NCBI GenBank assembly: GCA_902806395.1
Contig: CADCWH010000134.1
Span: 1 to 5,996, forward strand
Length of the DNA: 5,996 nucleotides
Reading direction: 5' to 3'
Source of the DNA: an uncultured Thermomicrobiales bacterium
GTDB lineage: Bacteria; Chloroflexota; Chloroflexia; Thermomicrobiales; UBA6265
Shown here: positions 3 through 5,996 of the stretch, piece by piece
Layout: every line of letters starts with the position of its first letter
How positions within the stretch are numbered: the first letter of the stretch is position 1
Program-made: the position numbers and the translations under genes
The notes under the pieces: model-generated
What the model was told of the DNA's origin: nothing
What the model saw: the letters and a program-made list of their open reading frames with translations, nothing else
The model's database searches: none

Positions 3-1766
3 TTACTCCTGGATCCAGACGTAGGTCAACTCAACGCCCCACGGCCCTGGCGTGTAGTTCTGCAGCCGGTCATTGTAGGCGACGATATCTTGGCTGAAGT
101 GAGTGACGATGACCGGCACCTCCTCGTTGACGATGTTGGACGCCTCGATCAGCAACTGCGCTCGCCGCTCCTCGTCGAACTCGCGACGTGCCGCGTTGTG
201 GATCTCGTCCAGTTGCGGGTTGCAGTACCGCATGTCATTGAAGCCGACCTGGTACTGGTCGCAGCCGAACATGGCGTCCTGGATGAAGCTGGCATCCCAG
301 GTGAACCCATAGTGCGCGACCGCGAAGGTCGGGGTGGTGGTGGTCGCCTCGATCAGCGCCGGGAACTCGAGGGCCCGCGGCGTCATCTCGACCCCGACTT
401 GCCCCCATGCGTCCTGGAGGTAGGCCACGATCTGGTCCGAGGTCGGCGACCCAGATGGGTAGAGGTACTCGAAGGCCATCTCTTGGCCCTCCCGGTCCAC
501 CGTCCCGTCGCCGTTCGTGTCGGTCCAGCCCGCCTCGGTCAGCAGTTGCCGCGCCCGTTCCTGGTCGAAGGTGTACTGGGTCGTGATCTGGTCCGGGGCA
601 TAGGCGTAGGAGATGACTGGCTGGGTGCCCTGGGCGACCTCGCCGTAGCCGAGCAGGATGTCGTTGACGATCGCCTCGCGATCCATCGCGTAGAAGAGCG
701 CCTGCCGCACCCGTGCGTCCTGAAACAGCGTGGTCACCGCGGGGTCGAGGTTGAATTCGATGTAGGTGAAGCCCTGGGTCGAGTAGTCAGTGACGACGAT
801 GCCCTCGGTGCCCTCGATGGCCGAGACATCGGCCGGCTCCAGCGCAGCGACGTCCAGCTCGTCATTCAGTAGGGCGTTGACCACCTGTTGCTGGTCCGGC
901 CAGATCCGGAGGCTGTAGCCGTCAATATACGGCACCTTGCCGTAGAAGTCGTCGTTGCGCACCAGGGTGACGCTCTCCCCCTGTCGCCACTCTTGGAACT
1001 TGAACGGGCCACTGCCGATGACCATGGACGTATCCTGACCGGTGCTGGCCGGGTGGGTCTTCCACTGGTCAAACGGGACGGTCCCCCAAATATGCTTCGG
1101 CACGATGTAGATGGCGAAGATGTCGTACAGGAAGCTGGCCAGTGGTTCGCTGGCCACGAGTTCGACCGTGTCTGCGTCGACCGCCCGGTAGGAGGTGACG
1201 GCGCTGTTGAAGGTTCCGGTGTAGGTGCTGCCCGTCGCCTCGTCGGCGAGGGCATCCATGCTGAAGACCACGTCCTCGGCGGTGACATCGACGCCGTCGT
1301 GGAACTTGGCGGCCTGGTTCAGATGGAAGGTGTAGGTGACGCGGTCCGGCGCGATCTCCCAACTATCCGCGAGGCCCAGCGGAGCCGGCTGACCAGTCCG
1401 GGGATCGCCCCCGATCAGCGAGTCGTAGATGAGTCCCATGACGGTAGACGTCTGCACTTCTTCAGAGAGCAGCGGGTTGAGCGTCTGGATATCGGAGATC
1501 CCCGCATCGATGAACGTCCCGCCCTGCCGCGCCGCCTCGGTGTAGCCCAGCTCGGCGTCGATCTCCCCCCGGAGCTGGTCCCGCGTCGGCGACTGGATCG
1601 TCTCCCCGAGCGCGACCGGCGACCCGGCGGGGGACGCGGCGGGTGATGCTCCTGGGGTGGCATCTTGGGCCAGCGTCGCCGCGGCCGGCGCCAGCAGCAT
1701 CGCGATCAGCAACGCCGTCAGCCAGCCGAACGGTCGAAAACGGGCACCACGCATCGTCCGGTCCAT
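3..1766 (-). CDS. ABC transporter substrate-binding protein, family 5 (dipeptide/oligopeptide type)
   Basis: This is a complete 587-residue extracellular solute-binding protein that would capture a peptide-like or other small ligand outside the membrane and deliver it to an ABC permease. Residues 1-33 form a Sec signal peptide: Arg-rich start, hydrophobic core at about 15-30, and likely cleavage after TLA. No lipobox cysteine is visible, so lipid anchoring is not supported. A low-complexity Ala/Ser/Pro/Thr linker (about 34-52) follows. The family-5 signature lies at about 144-172 (TYTFHL, then KFHDGVDVTAEDVVFSM). Other family landmarks are GSGPFKF (251-257), VRQALFYAMDREAIV (353-367) and the Ca-binding-like loop DTNGDGTVD (416-424). 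Cys502 and Cys515 could form a disulfide. The start at 1766 is favoured by a run of six G's five bases upstream; Met5 lacks such a site. The stop is TAA at the window edge, so any permease genes would lie outside. The fold is certain; the ligand is unknown. Confidence 0.96.
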   Translation of the reverse strand: MDRTMRGARFRPFGWLTALLIAMLLAPAAATLAQDATPGASPAASPAGSPVALGETIQSPTRDQLRGEIDAELGYTEAARQGGTFIDAGISDIQTLNPLLSEEVQTSTVMGLIYDSLIGGDPRTGQPAPLGLADSWEIAPDRVTYTFHLNQAAKFHDGVDVTAEDVVFSMDALADEATGSTYTGTFNSAVTSYRAVDADTVELVASEPLASFLYDIFAIYIVPKHIWGTVPFDQWKTHPASTGQDTSMVIGSGPFKFQEWRQGESVTLVRNDDFYGKVPYIDGYSLRIWPDQQQVVNALLNDELDVAALEPADVSAIEGTEGIVVTDYSTQGFTYIEFNLDPAVTTLFQDARVRQALFYAMDREAIVNDILLGYGEVAQGTQPVISYAYAPDQITTQYTFDQERARQLLTEAGWTDTNGDGTVDREGQEMAFEYLYPSGSPTSDQIVAYLQDAWGQVGVEMTPRALEFPALIEATTTTPTFAVAHYGFTWDASFIQDAMFGCDQYQVGFNDMRYCNPQLDEIHNAARREFDEERRAQLLIEASNIVNEEVPVIVTHFSQDIVAYNDRLQNYTPGPWGVELTYVWIQE

Positions 1767-2041: not shown

Positions 2042-2116
2042 ACGTCGGATGGGCCAGCCTCCCGCTCACCGGGTGGGCTTGGTCCGGTCAGGACGGGGCG
2101 CCACGGCGCCGCACGC

Positions 2117-2124
2117 GGAAGGGA
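2117..2124 (+). promoter_or_regulatory. Ribosome binding site deciding the amidohydrolase start
   Basis: GGAAGGGA is a good Shine-Dalgarno sequence lying 8 bases before an in-frame TTG (2133) and 11 before a GTG (2136). The frame stays open back to an ATG at 2049, but that start lacks a comparable site and adds about 29 residues unlike the family N-terminus. Translation therefore very probably starts at 2133 or 2136. Confidence 0.7.
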
Positions 2125-2135
2125 CATTGACCTTG

Positions 2136-3326
2136 GTGACGACGGTACTCAAGAACGACGTGGACGAGATCCTGCCCGGGGTGATCGCCGACCGGCGATT
2201 CCTGCACGAACATCCCGAGTTGGGCTTCCAGGAAGTCGAGACCTCCCGCTTCGTCGCCGAGCGCCTGGCGGCGATGGGCGTCGAGGACATCCGGACCGGC
2301 ATTGCCAAGACCGGCGTCACCGGCCTCATCCGTGGCCAGGGCGGCTCCGGGCCTGGCAAGACCCTCCTGATCCGGGCCGACATGGACGCCCTCCCGATCC
2401 AGGAAGAGAACGACGTCGACTACCGCTCCAAGCACGACGGCGTCATGCACGCCTGCGGCCACGACGCCCACACCGCGATGCTGCTCGGCGTCACCCGCCT
2501 GCTCCAGGATCGGCGCGGCGACTTCGCCGGGACCGTCAAGGTCCTCTTCCAGCCCGCCGAAGAAGGTCCGGGCGGCGCCAAGCCGATGATCGAGGCCGGC
2601 GCCCTGGAGGACCCCAAGGTCGACGCCGCCCTCGGGCTGCACGTCGCCCAGGCGATGCCCCTCGGCAAGATCGGCGTCCGCACCGGCCCGGCGATGGCCG
2701 CCTCGGACCGCTTCGAGATCCGCATCCAGGGCAAGGGTGGCCACGGCGCCCGCCCCCAGGCCACGGTTGACCCGATCGCCATTGGTGCCCAGATCGTCGT
2801 CGCTCTCCAGACGATCGTCAGCCGCGAGACCGACCCGACCGTCCCGGCCGTGGTCACCGTCGGTGCCTTCCTCGCCGGCCAAGCCTTCAACGTCATCCCC
2901 GACACCGCCACCCTGCGCGGCACCGTCCGCTCGTTCGACAACGACGAGCGCCAGCGCCTGGCCGAGCGGATCCAGGCCGTCGCGACGGGCATCGCCGCGG
3001 CGATGCGGGCCGAGGCGACCGTGGACTACTCGTTCGGCTACCCACCGACGGTCAACGACGCCGCGATGACCGATATCGTCCGCGCCGCCGCGACCAGCGT
3101 CGTCGGGGCCGAGAACGTGGTCGACGAGGAACTGCACATGGGCGCCGAGGACATGAGCTATTTCCTCGAGGCCGTCCCCGGCTCCTTCTTCTTCGTCGGT
3201 AGCATGAACGAGGACCGGGGACTGGTGTGGGGACACCACCACCCCCGCTTCGACATCGACGAGGTCGCCCTCTCGACCGGGATGGCAACGATGGTCGAGT
3301 CTGCGCTCGGCTACCTGAACGGCTAA
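2136..3326 (+). CDS. M20-family metallopeptidase / N-acyl-amino-acid amidohydrolase
   Basis: This 396-residue cytoplasmic zinc (or Mn/Co) hydrolase belongs to the M20D group, whose members cleave N-acyl, N-benzoyl (hippurate) or auxin-amino-acid amides. The N-terminus has the usual RRFLHEHPELGFQE (20-33). The binuclear metal site is intact. RADMDALP lies at 80-87, ACGHDAH at 106-112 gives Cys107 and His109, the catalytic Glu pair is E142-E143 in QPAEEGPGGAKPMI, His169 sits in GLHV, and His367-369 lie in HHHPRFDIDE near the C-terminus. The dimerisation or lid domain occupies about 186-300, marked by GKGGHGARP (199-207). Length is normal for the family. The start is GTG at 2136, or the adjacent TTG at 2133. 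The stop is TAA, and a small membrane-protein gene starts 8 bases later. Sequence alone does not fix the substrate. The divergent peptide-type binding protein makes a peptide-derived or N-acyl compound plausible. Confidence 0.95.
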   Translation: MTTVLKNDVDEILPGVIADRRFLHEHPELGFQEVETSRFVAERLAAMGVEDIRTGIAKTGVTGLIRGQGGSGPGKTLLIRADMDALPIQEENDVDYRSKHDGVMHACGHDAHTAMLLGVTRLLQDRRGDFAGTVKVLFQPAEEGPGGAKPMIEAGALEDPKVDAALGLHVAQAMPLGKIGVRTGPAMAASDRFEIRIQGKGGHGARPQATVDPIAIGAQIVVALQTIVSRETDPTVPAVVTVGAFLAGQAFNVIPDTATLRGTVRSFDNDERQRLAERIQAVATGIAAAMRAEATVDYSFGYPPTVNDAAMTDIVRAAATSVVGAENVVDEELHMGAEDMSYFLEAVPGSFFFVGSMNEDRGLVWGHHHPRFDIDEVALSTGMATMVESALGYLNG

Positions 3327-3868: not shown

Positions 3869-4549
3869 CTACCCCGCCGTCGCCCGGATTGTCGCGGCCT
3901 GGGCGGCGATGAACCGCTCGGCCATGCTCGCCGTCCGCTCCGCCTCGGCCCGGTCGAACGGGTCGCGCACCCGTCCCGCCATGGCCCCCATCGCGAAGCG
4001 CACCCCGCGCATGTAGACCGCCAGGTTCGGCAGAGTCACCGCCCGGGGTCCCGGCGCGGACTCACCGTAGGGCACCGTTCCGACGGCCCGCTCGATCGGC
4101 GGCAGACCGAGCCCGTCGAGGGCCGCCAGCACCTCCCCGTCGTCCGGCCGATCCATGAAGTCGGCTCCGGCGTAGCGGTACACCTCGTCACCGGCCGGGG
4201 ACAGGACGACGATCGCCGGCCGTGCCATCGAGCCGGCCTCGTCCCAGGCATCGTGGGGCTTGATCAGTCGGTCGCCCGTCGGGTCGGAGAGGATCGGGAA
4301 GGGGAGGGCCAGCTTCTCGACCATCGCCGCGTTCTGTCCCGGGGTATCGATCACCACCGCGGCGATCGTCGCGCCGCGCCGGAGATATTCTCCGTACGCG
4401 CGCGCCATCACGGCCAACTGGCCGTTACAGTATGGTCACCAGTCTCCGCGATAGAAGACCAGGACCACCGCCCCGGTCCCGAGCGCGTTGTCGATGTCCC
4501 ATGGCTCACCCGCCTGGTCCCGAACCGGTTCTCTGCTGCCGTCTCGCAT
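3869..4549 (-). CDS. Peroxiredoxin-like selenoprotein (UxxC; in-frame TGA read as selenocysteine)
   Basis: This is a 226-residue AhpC/TSA-type thioredoxin-fold protein, likely a thiol-dependent peroxidase or reductase in the cytoplasm. Translation gives VVLVFYRGDW (28-37), then TGA (4436-4438, codon 38), then PYCNGQLAVMARAY. Cysteine homologues read F-Y-R-G-x-W-C-P-Y-C, so TGA replaces the catalytic Cys and leaves Cys41, the only Cys, as partner. The fold continues through LPFPILSD (82-89) and a likely cis-Pro at ARP (109-111), to an AALDGL helix near 142-147. Residues 155-226 form a tail of unknown role (YMRGVRFAMGAM, helical end). AAAGGA, five bases before the ATG at 4549, fixes the start. 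A SECIS-like hairpin follows the TGA. The gene lies 34 bases after the TlpA-like selenoprotein gene, surely one operon. Pseudogene or sequencing error is unlikely because both neighbours carry TGA exactly at the catalytic Cys. Gene callers may instead report 3869-4417 from a TTG. Confidence 0.87.
4405..4430 (-). promoter_or_regulatory. Putative bacterial SECIS element of the peroxiredoxin-like gene
   Basis: In the mRNA, ACGGCCAGUUGGCCGU (4425 down to 4410) folds into a perfect 6-bp stem with an AGUU loop. Beyond one A/G mismatch, four more pairs (U-A, G-U, U-G, C-G) extend the stem to 4405-4430. The loop begins 17 nt after the TGA and has G at its second position. This matches the known bacterial SECIS pattern (hairpin inside the coding region, loop about 16-37 nt downstream, G among the first two loop bases), which SelB recognises to insert selenocysteine. 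Confidence 0.75.
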
Positions 4550-4554
4550 CGTGG

Positions 4555-4560
4555 TCCTTT
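4555..4560 (-). promoter_or_regulatory. Ribosome binding site deciding the peroxiredoxin-like start
   Basis: On the minus strand AAAGGA sits five bases (CCACG) before the ATG at 4549, inside the 34-base gap after the upstream gene's stop. This is the best Shine-Dalgarno match in the window. It rejects the longer in-frame start at 4624, which would overlap the upstream gene. Confidence 0.8.
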
Positions 4561-4583
4561 CGCCGGCCAGTGGCCGGACCGGG

Positions 4584-5363
4584 TCATCGGCTCGCGGTCG
4601 TCGCCCACGGGATCGGACAGCCATCGGGACCGCAGATGCCGTCCGCGATCTCCCGCTCCCGCTCCATCCGGAGTTGCTCGCCTTGCCAGGCGAAGTCGAT
4701 CGTCGGGAAAAACTTCTCGGGGTGCTCGGCAGCCCAGATCTGCTTCCGGATCGTGAAGTTCTCCGGGTCCAGGCCCAACGCCTCGCGCCAGGCCACGACC
4801 GCCTCGTCCCGCCGTCCGGCCTCGTCGAGCAGACGCCCCAGCCGGACCTTGGTCGTCACCAGCTCCTGCTCCAGCGGCCCGAGCGCGTAGGGCGCGGTGG
4901 CCTCCGGGCTCGCCCCCGGGTCCTCACCGGCCAGGAACCGTTCGACGGTGGCCACGTCCTCCAGATCGTCGATCGAGAAGCCGCCGAACTTGGCCCAGCG
5001 GATGATGCCCGCCTCATCGACGAGCAGGCCATTCGGCACGACCTTGAGCCCAAGGTGGTGGCTCAAAGCGCCCTGGTCGTCGATCACCGTCGGGAACGTG
5101 GCCCCGGCCGCCTCGACGAACGGCCGCGCCGCATCGGCCCCCGTGTGCTCGATCGCGATCGAGATGAGCGCGAAGTCGTCAGCGTGGTGTCGTCGGTAGA
5201 AGTGCTGCCACCCGGGCAGCTGGTCACGGCATCGTCACCACGAGGCCCACATGAACAGCAGCGATCGCTTCCCCCGAAGGTCGGCAAGGCGGACCTCGCC
5301 GCCATCGAGCGCCGAGAGCCTCAGGTCCGGGAGTCCCTGCCCCACGTCGGTGGCCGTCGTCAT
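4584..5363 (-). CDS. TlpA/ResA-like thioredoxin-fold selenoprotein with TPR-like C-terminus (in-frame TGA read as selenocysteine)
   Basis: This is a 259-residue redoxin with no signal peptide, so probably a cytoplasmic thiol-disulfide or peroxide-handling enzyme. The N-terminus (GLPDLRLSALDGGEVRLADLRGK) is typical of the TlpA/AhpC redoxin group. SLLFMWASW (34-42) runs into TGA (5235-5237, codon 43), then RCRDQLPGWQ. TlpA homologues read W-A-S-W-C-x-x-C-R-x-E-L-P, so TGA replaces the first active-site Cys. Cys45 follows after one residue, giving UxC, one residue shorter than usual. The fold continues with DFALISIAIE and the cis-Pro110 loop (VVPNGLLVDEAG). A TPR-like helical pair follows (173-210, DEAVVAWREALGLDPEN), then a tail with C244-GPDG-C249. 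The ATG at 5363 has GGGGAG seven bases upstream; the ATG at 5369 is too close to it. The stop is TGA at 4584-4586. Gene callers would keep only 4584-5087 from a GTG. The selenoprotein reading is strong; the exact function is unknown. Confidence 0.86.
5204..5220 (-). promoter_or_regulatory. Putative bacterial SECIS element of the TlpA-like gene
   Basis: In the mRNA, GCUGCC (5220-5215), loop CGGGU (5214-5210) and GGCAGC (5209-5204) form a perfect 6-bp stem. The loop begins 21 nt after the TGA and has G at its second position, within the range known for bacterial SECIS elements. Below the stem, pairing is poor (three mismatches, then two pairs), so the lower part is weaker than in the neighbouring gene's hairpin. 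Confidence 0.7.
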
Positions 5364-5376: not shown

Positions 5377-5559
5377 ACTACCCAGTCCGGGCGTCGTCTT
5401 CACACATGGCCAGGGCTGCACGTTTCGTTCCACTTCCAGGTCCCATCATCTCCCTAACGATGACCCCTGGCCAGAGACGTTCCCTTTTCATGCCAGCTTG
5501 GGCGTCCCTGGTATGATCGCGACGGGTCAACATGATGCGTGCGGTACGGGGTGACGACG
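5377..5559. other. Divergent intergenic region between the selenoprotein operon and the nitrilase gene
   Basis: About 180 bases with no supported gene. It must hold the promoter of the minus-strand redox operon and that of the plus-strand nitrilase. A -10-like site is visible for the nitrilase (separate entry). I could not find a convincing -10/-35 pair for the redox operon. A 9-base inverted repeat, TGGCCAGGG (5407-5415) and CCCTGGCCA (5465-5473), lies upstream of the redox operon and could be an operator or chance. Confidence 0.45.
5510..5518 (+). promoter_or_regulatory. Possible extended -10 promoter element of the nitrilase gene
   Basis: GGTATGATC contains TATGAT, close to the TATAAT consensus, preceded by TGG as an extended -10. 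It ends about 42 bases before the ATG at 5560, a sensible promoter-to-start distance. The sequence 17 bases upstream (CATGCC) is a poor -35. It matches the GGTAnnnTC pattern of the other two candidates. Confidence 0.5.
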
Positions 5560-5996
5560 ATGGGTGACGCATTCCCGACGTATAGGGTCGCGGCGGTGCA
5601 GGCGGCGCCGGTGTTCTTGGACCGGGACGCCTCCGTCGCCAAAGCTTGTCGCCTGATCACCGAGGCAGGCGCGCACGGAGCGCGGTTGGCGGTCTTTGGG
5701 GAGACGTGGCTGCCGGGCTACCCGATCTGGCTCGATATCGCGCCCGGCGCCGGCCTGTGGGACCATGAACCGGCCAAGGAGATCTTCGCGCGCTTCGTCG
5801 CCAACGCCGTAGAGGTGCCTGGCCCGGCGATCGATGCCCTCGGAATGGCCGCTGCCGAAGCGGGGTGTGCCGTGGTGATGGGCATCAACGAGCGGGAGCG
5901 CGGTCGCTCGTCCGGCACCTTGTACAACTCGATCATCTCCCTCGGTGCTGACGGCCGTCTGCTCGGCAAGCATCGGAAGTTGATTCCGACCTACAC
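5560..5996 (+). CDS. Nitrilase / carbon-nitrogen hydrolase, 5' part (runs off the window)
   Basis: The first 145 residues of a nitrilase-superfamily enzyme are present; the rest lies beyond the window. These enzymes hydrolyse nitriles or amides with a Glu-Lys-Cys triad. Visible landmarks are the opening strand YRVAAVQAAPVFLDRDASVAKA (8-29), the catalytic Glu48 in FGETWLPGYPIW, and the catalytic Lys140 in GKHRKLIPTY at the very end. LYNSIISLGADG (121-132) is the usual strand pair before that lysine. The catalytic Cys should appear roughly 30-40 residues further on. FGETWLPGYP with HRKLIPT fits true nitrilases and cyanide hydratase relatives better than amidases, so an organic nitrile substrate is likely but not proven. 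The ATG at 5560 has GGGG about eight bases upstream. In-frame GTGs at 5551 and 5539 are alternatives, and an in-frame TGA at 5533 caps the extension. The gene is divergent from the selenoprotein operon. Confidence 0.92.
   Translation, partial: MGDAFPTYRVAAVQAAPVFLDRDASVAKACRLITEAGAHGARLAVFGETWLPGYPIWLDIAPGAGLWDHEPAKEIFARFVANAVEVPGPAIDALGMAAAEAGCAVVMGINERERGRSSGTLYNSIISLGADGRLLGKHRKLIPTY

What the first reader, a model, noticed from the sequence alone, without database searches (positions are those of the whole stretch)
3869..5363. Tandem selenoprotein redox operon: two adjacent Sec genes of different thioredoxin-fold families
The two genes lie 34 bases apart on one strand, share a terminator-like hairpin and each carry one TGA at the catalytic Cys. 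Two independent TGAs at exactly the functional residue, each followed by a suitable hairpin, make nonsense mutation or sequencing error improbable. A TlpA-like UxC protein paired with a peroxiredoxin-like UxxC protein suggests an electron-transfer or peroxide/thiol stress module. I do not know of this pair as a described system.
Basis: inference. Interest (0 to 1): 0.92.

Follow-up and report, generated by a model that had tools for sequence, protein, structure and literature searches.

The report
Paired selenoprotein redox genes
Two neighbouring genes of a bacterium related to the Thermomicrobiales each appear to use a stop codon to insert selenium into a redox enzyme; the pairing recurs in relatives and seems to belong to a larger selenium-enzyme neighbourhood of unknown chemistry.

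Summary
The core observation holds. On the minus strand, gene 1 (5363-4584) is ResA/TlpA-like with an in-frame TGA in WASW-U-R-C; gene 2 (4549-3869) has a peroxiredoxin fold with TGA in FYRGDW-U-PYC. TGA stands at the gene 1 site in 21 of 21 sites of this subfamily (window plus 20 loci), and a hairpin after it is conserved. Relatives carry SelB (17 of 20). In 158 genomes of the closest relative's class, gene 2 is in 6; all 6 hold gene 1. Five have gene 1 directly before gene 2 on one strand (one of them broken); one has them 1.3 kb apart on opposite strands.

The peroxidase reading is weakened: gene 2 lacks the peroxiredoxin motif and Arg, and its Sec aligns with the ResA attacking Cys, not the peroxidatic Cys. 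I read both as thiol/selenol-disulfide oxidoreductases of one relay.

New: in some relatives the nitrilase beside gene 1 leads a block with a double-Sec (UPIU) PrdB-like selenoprotein; the window holds the start of an 81%-identical nitrilase. The broad families are known; this pair and neighbourhood were not found in the papers searched. Function is inferred.

The parts
4584..5363 (-). Gene 1: ResA/TlpA-like selenoprotein, 259 aa, start ATG, stop TGA; thioredoxin-fold domain with U-x-C, then TPR-like helices and a C-terminal CGPDGCP tail
   Evidence: AhpC-TSA and Redoxin domains over cut-off; AlphaFold2 pLDDT 91.6; top structural matches 3kcm and ResA
5235..5237 (-). TGA codon read as selenocysteine (U43) of gene 1
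   Evidence: TGA in 21 of 21 subfamily sites read
5204..5220 (-). SECIS-like hairpin of gene 1 (GCUGCC / GGCAGC, loop CGGGU), starting 14 bases after the TGA
   Evidence: 96.8% of cells paired over 21 sequences (0 of 500 shuffles as high); covariation weak; Leu codon CTG/TTG in 21 of 21
4614..4634 (-). CGPDGCP: conserved C-terminal Cys pair of gene 1, possible second redox site
   Evidence: 28 of 30 rows and 106 of 120 listed homologues; absent from L020, L021 and the WAxxUGC_long paralogue. Part of the locus scan used this motif, so the loci are not an independent sample
4550..4583 (-). 34-base gap with a ribosome-site-like AAAGGA before gene 2; no terminator-like site found
   Evidence: gaps in relatives 37, 39, 41, 42 bases
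3869..4549 (-). Gene 2: peroxiredoxin-fold UxxC selenoprotein, 226 aa, stop TAG, with a two-helix C-terminal extension
4436..4438 (-). TGA codon read as selenocysteine (U38) of gene 2
   Evidence: TGA in 6 relatives at 45% identity or more
4410..4425 (-). SECIS-like hairpin of gene 2 (ACGGCC-AGUU-GGCCGU)
   Evidence: folding energy alone not unusual (z 0.57)
5539..5996 (+). Divergent nitrilase-family gene (likely ATG 5560), cut by the window end; in some relatives it leads the PrdB-like block
   Evidence: CN_hydrolase 82.9 bits; 81-82% identical to the nitrilases of L001 and L014

Best explanation
Genes 1 and 2 form a conserved two-selenoprotein unit of Thermomicrobiales-type bacteria. Shown: each has one in-frame TGA at the attacking position of a thioredoxin-type active site, and the two genes stay together in relatives. 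Inferred: both TGAs are read as Sec through the hairpin just downstream. Gene 1, a probably cytosolic ResA/TlpA-like U-x-C protein with a TPR-like arm and a conserved C-terminal CGPDGCP Cys pair, takes electrons from a general dithiol reductase and passes them on by selenol-disulfide exchange, the tail Cys pair acting as an internal shuttle or resolving site. Gene 2, a U-x-x-C oxidoreductase on a peroxiredoxin scaffold without the peroxidase motif, is a partner in the same relay. In some relatives the relay probably serves the double-Sec PrdB-like reductase of the nitrilase block.
For: Sec: TGA 21 of 21 at the gene 1 site. Public gene models lack the site in 118 of 120 listed gene 1 and 113 of 120 listed gene 2 homologues by a pattern search; of those aligned, 27 of 29 and 23 of 29 start after it, as expected when TGA is taken as a stop. 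Hairpin: 96.8% of cells paired (0 of 500 shuffles as high). Machinery: SelB over cut-off in 17 of 20 relatives, including all 6 with gene 2 (controls 2 of 14); tRNA-Sec at 64.7 bits or more in 13 of 19. Pairing: all 6 gene 2 genomes have a copy within 1.4 kb of gene 1. Chemistry: gene 1 aligns and folds with ResA/TlpA; gene 2's U aligns with the first Cys of a ResA variant's CPHC and with Ser of FSPVC in a peroxiredoxin. PrdB link: of 6 genomes with gene 1 and the UPIU gene, 4 have them on one contig within about 1.7 kb.
Against: No whole genome is held for the window, so its own Sec machinery is untested. Gene 1 lacks gene 2 in 8 of 14 genomes. In G009 the genes lie on opposite strands with other genes between. 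G146 has two further gene 2 pieces on other contigs, and G003 a gene 2-like fragment apart from its gene 1. Hairpin energies are not special; on covariation 13 of 500 shuffles reach the observed value, two slid controls exceed it (0.096 and 0.127 against 0.084), and the count of pairs changed on both sides is ordinary (177 of 500). Two gene 1 homologues read W at the site; six gene 2 homologues read C and one W. tRNA-Sec was below 48 bits in 6 of 19 relatives, including G002, G009 and G017 with gene 2, and 5 of 14 control genomes also pass the gathering score. Electron flow, partners and the tail's role are inferred only.
Confidence: 0.55

Rival explanations
1. Peroxide-stress module: gene 2 is a Sec peroxiredoxin and gene 1 its reductant.
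For: Gene 2 has a clear peroxiredoxin fold and lies beside a ResA-like protein; some thioredoxin-type selenoproteins reduce peroxides (recalled).
Against: U38 aligns with the Ser of FSPVC, not with the peroxidatic Cys; the first Pro of PxxxT is absent; Pro111, invariant in 29 of 29 aligned sequences, stands where peroxiredoxins have Arg (which residues are catalytic in the solved proteins is recalled).
Confidence: 0.18
2. Gene 1 is mainly the electron donor of a PrdB/GrdB-like selenoenzyme system (nitrilase, 94-aa protein, UPIU PrdB-like protein); gene 2 is a lineage-specific addition.
For: UPIU PrdB-like gene in 7 of 158 genomes; 6 of these hold gene 1, 4 on the same contig within about 1.7 kb. 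G012 has a second gene 1-like copy next to a single-Sec PrdB-like gene. The 94-aa gene lies directly before PrdB in 7 of 7 (in two frames in G012).
Against: G002, G015 and G017 carry genes 1 and 2 but no PrdB-like match at E 1e-10. The window ends before any PrdB gene could be seen.
Confidence: 0.3
3. Two thiol-repair selenoproteins that share a promoter but not a pathway.
For: Gene 1 occurs alone; G146 and G003 have gene 2 pieces away from gene 1; no direct evidence of interaction.
Against: All 6 genomes with a gene 2 match at 1e-49 or better have a copy by gene 1; in G009 order and strand differ but nearness is kept.
Confidence: 0.2
4. Nonsense mutations, sequencing error or another stop-codon reassignment (TGA = Trp).
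For: Three public proteins show W at the site (P0007, P0009, P0133); L014 and L015 carry a further in-frame stop.
Against: TGA is held at exactly these codons over 39-77% protein identity; SelB and tRNA-Sec are present in most relatives.
Confidence: 0.03

Closest known systems
UGC-containing TlpA / Prx-like selenoprotein (PMC13188914 Table 1; 'Prx-like (UGC-containing)' in PMC2398784) and NCBIfam NF041054 WAxxUGC_long
   Same: ResA/TlpA-type domain with Sec two residues before Cys (U-x-C)
   Different: Here U-R-C (R 8, G 9, N 2, S 1, H 1 of 21); 145.8 bits against the 300-bit cut-off of NF041054; CGPDGCP tail, which the NF041054 member in L001 lacks
Prx-like thiol:disulfide oxidoreductase, UxxC (PMC13188914 Table 1)
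   Same: PF00578 domain with Sec as first residue of UxxC
   Different: Two-helix C-terminal extension in the model; the NCBIfam SelL-related model scores 31.8 against a cut-off of 120. Not compared directly with that class's sequences
[quoted passage not shown] grdA-grdB, prdB-prdC, SAO and Tso operons (PMC13188914, passages)
   Same: Co-located Sec genes thought to share a redox pathway
   Different: This combination (UxC ResA-like plus UxxC Prx-like), and its nitrilase/UPIU-PrdB-like neighbourhood, are not among those named in the passages read
D-proline reductase PrdB / GRDB selenoproteins (TIGR04483, PF07355)
   Same: The neighbouring gene in relatives matches both models (GRDB 43.5 bits over its cut-off of 22)
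   Different: Two TGAs in UPIU; PrdB equivalog score 138.4 against a cut-off of 300

Membership tests
Bacterial selenoprotein | In-frame TGA conserved at a redox-active position across homologues | tested here: met
   Gene 1: 21 of 21; gene 2: window and 6 relatives
Bacterial selenoprotein | SECIS-type hairpin just downstream of the TGA | tested here: inconclusive
   Conserved hairpin, but energy z-scores 0.09 and 0.57, weak covariation and no Rfam match over a gathering score
Bacterial selenoprotein | SelB and tRNA-Sec in the same genome | tested here: inconclusive
   No genome held for the window; in relatives SelB 17 of 20, tRNA-Sec at 64.7 bits or more 13 of 19
NF041054 WAxxUGC_long | Score over the 300-bit curated cut-off | tested here: not met
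   145.8 bits; the paralogue in L001 meets it with 476.9
UGC-containing TlpA/Prx-like selenoprotein | ResA/TlpA-type domain with U-x-C | tested here: met
   the middle residue is R in the window, so a strict UGC reading is not met
Canonical peroxiredoxin (gene 2) | Peroxiredoxin fold | tested here: met
Canonical peroxiredoxin (gene 2) | PxxxT/SxxC motif and active-site Arg | tested here: not met
   RGDW-U-PYC at the motif and Pro111 in place of Arg by alignment
SelL-related redox protein NF040769 (gene 2) | Score over the 120-bit cut-off | tested here: not met
   31.8 bits
Selenoprotein operon | Conserved co-directional adjacency of Sec genes | tested here: met
   Window plus G001, G002, G015, G017, G146; in G146 gene 1 is a C-terminal piece and gene 2 is frameshifted
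Selenoprotein operon | One transcript | not testable with these tools
   Needs RNA; only gap lengths and the absence of a terminator-like site are known

The most novel reading that the evidence does not exclude
The window shows one side of a two-sided selenoprotein locus: UxC ResA-like and UxxC Prx-like redox proteins on one side, and on the other a nitrilase, a 94-aa protein and a double-Sec (UPIU) PrdB-like enzyme, together carrying out an undescribed reductive step on a nitrogen compound, with the ResA-like selenoprotein as electron donor.
Probability: 0.35. Interest if true: 0.75.

Novelty: new variant of a known kind. Interest (0 to 1): 0.6.

Why it matters
Public gene models of the listed homologues nearly always leave out the Sec site (118 of 120 and 113 of 120), so two selenoprotein subfamilies, and the neighbourhood that links them to a double-Sec PrdB-like enzyme and a nitrilase, are easily missed in normal annotation. 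If the relay is real, it gives a testable selenium-dependent pathway in uncultivated bacteria. No Cys form of the gene 1 subfamily was met in the loci read, so it may show why Sec is kept.

Tried and rejected
Nonsense mutation, sequencing error and TGA=Trp were rejected; three homologues with W at the site stay unexplained. A peroxidase reading of gene 2 was made unlikely. Shared contig lengths between homologue lists as a sign of adjacency: 14 shared against a shifted-control mean of 3.95 and maximum of 10 (lists typed by hand); too weak and not used. A search for homologues covering gene 1 residues 1-75 gave none at E 1e-3, though P0007 covers that region, so this negative is not trusted. 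Rfam gave only three matches, all below their gathering scores. A gene 2 search over the phylum did not complete, so its spread outside the class is unknown. The structure lists hardly cover gene 2's C-terminal helices, so nothing is said of their fold. Paper searches with words for the two families and the nitrilase listed no paper on the pair (listings).

Full report
OBSERVATION. Both genes read as described. Gene 1, 5363-4584 on the minus strand, is open for 259 codons with one in-frame TGA (5237-5235); gene 2, 4549-3869, for 226 codons with one TGA (4438-4436). The gap is 34 bases. Pfam finds AhpC-TSA (60.3 and 68.9 bits against 26) and Redoxin in both. Gene 1 resembles ResA/TlpA; gene 2 is peroxiredoxin-like. 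A terminator-like hairpin shared by the genes was not found.

MORE THAN CHANCE. A scan of the genome collection (84,980 species by the tool's description) for two peptide patterns of the gene 1 alignment, one in the thioredoxin domain and one in the CGPDGCP tail, gave 24 loci. L022 and L023 are remote (24-26% identity) and have Cys at the site; L024 is a C-terminal piece; L019 is cut before the site; these four are left out. The other 20 loci and the window all have TGA: 21 of 21, the loci at 39-77% identity to the window. Two genomes supply two sites each (L012/L018, L009/L015). L014 and L015 also carry a further in-frame stop. For gene 2 the site is TGA in L001, L002, L016, L019, L033 and L009; the gene in L033 is frameshifted. 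A fragment in G003 (L047) has the TGA plus a TAG. Of 120 listed homologues each, a pattern for the site is present in 2 (gene 1, both W) and 7 (gene 2: C in 6, one of which has lost the second Cys, and W in 1); of the 29 homologues aligned for each gene, 27 and 23 start after the site.

HAIRPINS. A stem GCUGCC/GGCAGC with loop CGGGU (or a close variant) begins 14 bases after the gene 1 TGA. Over 21 sequences 96.8% of cells pair (0 of 500 shuffles as high). Covariation is weak: one pair changes on both sides, in two sequences; 13 of 500 shuffles reach the covariation score, 177 of 500 the number of such pairs, and two slid controls score higher. The Leu codon in the stem is CTG or TTG in 21 of 21, against 54% of Leu codons elsewhere in the same genes (kinship not corrected). 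Gene 2 has ACGGCC-AGUU-GGCCGU. Folding energies do not stand out from shuffles. That a G early in the loop is typical of bacterial SECIS elements is recalled knowledge.

SEC MACHINERY. No whole genome is held for the window. In 20 relatives SelB passes the curated cut-off in 17 (not in G011, G014, G016), including all 6 with gene 2; 2 of 14 control genomes pass. tRNA-Sec reaches 64.7 bits or more in 13 of 19 relatives; 2 more pass the gathering score narrowly, 4 do not; 5 of 14 controls pass. G146 was not in that search.

CONSERVED PAIRING. Among 158 genomes of the class of G001 (the genome of L001, the nearest locus, 77% identity in gene 1), gene 2 at E 1e-49 or better is in 6: G001, G002, G009, G015, G017, G146. 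G146 has two more gene 2 pieces on other contigs at 6e-49 and 1e-47, and G003 a fragment at 1e-12 (L047). Gene 1 of this subfamily is in 14: 13 genomes from 8e-138 to 2.5e-62, and G146 with a C-terminal piece at 1.9e-26. The other 131 of the 145 genomes with a match at 1e-10 have only weaker matches (3.6e-23 or worse), taken as the general ResA family; among them G160 has a C-terminal piece at 48% identity that was not counted. All 6 gene 2 genomes are among the 14. In 5 of 6 gene 1 stands directly before gene 2 on the same strand; in G009 they lie 1.3 kb apart on opposite strands. Gaps are 34, 37, 39, 41 and 42 bases in the window, L001, L019, L002 and L016. Eight gene 1 genomes lack gene 2 at this level.

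GENE 1. AlphaFold2 (pLDDT 91.6) gives a thioredoxin-fold domain to about residue 145, then helices that match designed TPR proteins by whole-sequence score, no stretch alone, then a short tail with CGPDGCP. The tail stands in 28 of 30 aligned rows and 106 of 120 listed homologues; it is missing from L020, whose frame ends before it, from L021, and from the WAxxUGC_long paralogue. One of the two scan patterns was this tail, so its frequency in the loci is partly selected. The best structural matches are 3kcm and ResA. No signal peptide is visible by eye, so a cytosolic place is inferred. The shuttle role of the tail is inference.

NEIGHBOURHOOD. The window holds, divergent from gene 1, the first part of a nitrilase-family gene (5539 or 5560 to the window end), 81% identical to that of L001 and 82% to that of L014. 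In L001 the nitrilase, at the same divergent place, is followed by a 94-aa protein and a PrdB/GRDB-like protein with two in-frame TGAs, ALLAPA-U-PI-U-HQSVAL. In L014 nitrilase, 94-aa gene, PrdB-like gene, membrane protein and gene 1 follow on one strand. In L009 nitrilase and gene 2 are on one strand, 94-aa gene, PrdB-like gene and gene 1 on the other. The PrdB-like gene at 75% identity or more, with two TGAs, is in 7 of 158 genomes, all 7 reading UPIU, with the 94-aa gene directly before it in 7 of 7 (in two frames in G012). Six of the 7 hold gene 1, 4 of these on the same contig within about 1.7 kb (G001, G009, G012, G014); G010 and G146 have them on different contigs, and G072 has no subfamily member. 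The PrdB-like protein passes the Pfam GRDB cut-off (43.5 against 22) but not the PrdB equivalog (138.4 against 300). G002, G015 and G017 carry genes 1 and 2 without a PrdB-like match at E 1e-10, and no nitrilase match was listed in L002, L016 or L019.

MECHANISM. Most likely the two proteins form a selenol/disulfide relay, gene 1 passing electrons through U-x-C and perhaps the tail Cys pair, gene 2 acting as partner. Where the PrdB-like gene is present, gene 1 may reduce it, as thioredoxin systems do in clostridial glycine and proline reductases (recalled). Confidence: Sec in both genes 0.95, conserved pairing 0.9, the relay 0.4-0.5, the PrdB link 0.35.

LITERATURE. PMC13188914 (passages, and part 1 of 3 of section 7) lists UGC-containing TlpA and Prx-like UxxC families and names selenoprotein operons; PMC2398784 (12 of 14 passages) reports 46 UGC-containing Prx-like sequences and neighbouring Sec genes of other families; PMC9312934 and PMC5029168 (passages) add no such pair. 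Full-text searches (listings only, most papers not opened, among them PMC1088965) showed no title or abstract start on this pair or on a nitrilase with a PrdB-like selenoprotein. The 2025 paper on selenoprotein neighbourhoods cited in the review is not held, so a description there cannot be excluded.

Noticed in passing
5539-5996 (+): Nitrilase-family gene cut by the window end; in some relatives it leads a block with a double-Sec (UPIU) PrdB-like gene.
   Followed up: partly
L001:3560-4345 (-), L009:2421-3227 (+), L014:1715-2524 (+), L012:4219-5001 (+): PrdB/GRDB-like protein with two in-frame TGAs (UPIU), preceded by a 94-aa protein without Pfam or NCBIfam match.
   Followed up: partly
L001:1610-2494 (+): A WAxxUGC_long selenoprotein (NF041054, 476.9 bits) lies about 4.4 kb before gene 1, so five Sec codons fall within about 6 kb.
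   Followed up: no
P0007, P0009 (gene 1 family), P0133 (gene 2 family): Public proteins with Trp at the Sec position; true TGG or TGA translated as Trp could not be told apart.
   Followed up: no
G012:C12:104756-106329: A further gene 1-like copy, in two frames, next to a single-Sec PrdB-like gene in the same genome.
   Followed up: no
L047 (G003): Gene 2-like fragment with the TGA and a TAG, apart from gene 1: possibly a decaying copy.
   Followed up: no
G146:C118:1-399 and G146:C259:47876-48265: Two further gene 2 C-terminal pieces (63-65% identity) away from gene 1 in the same genome.
   Followed up: no
3-1766 (-) and 2049-3326 (+): Ordinary neighbours: an ABC-type solute-binding protein (SBP_bac_5) and an M20 family amidohydrolase.
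   Followed up: no
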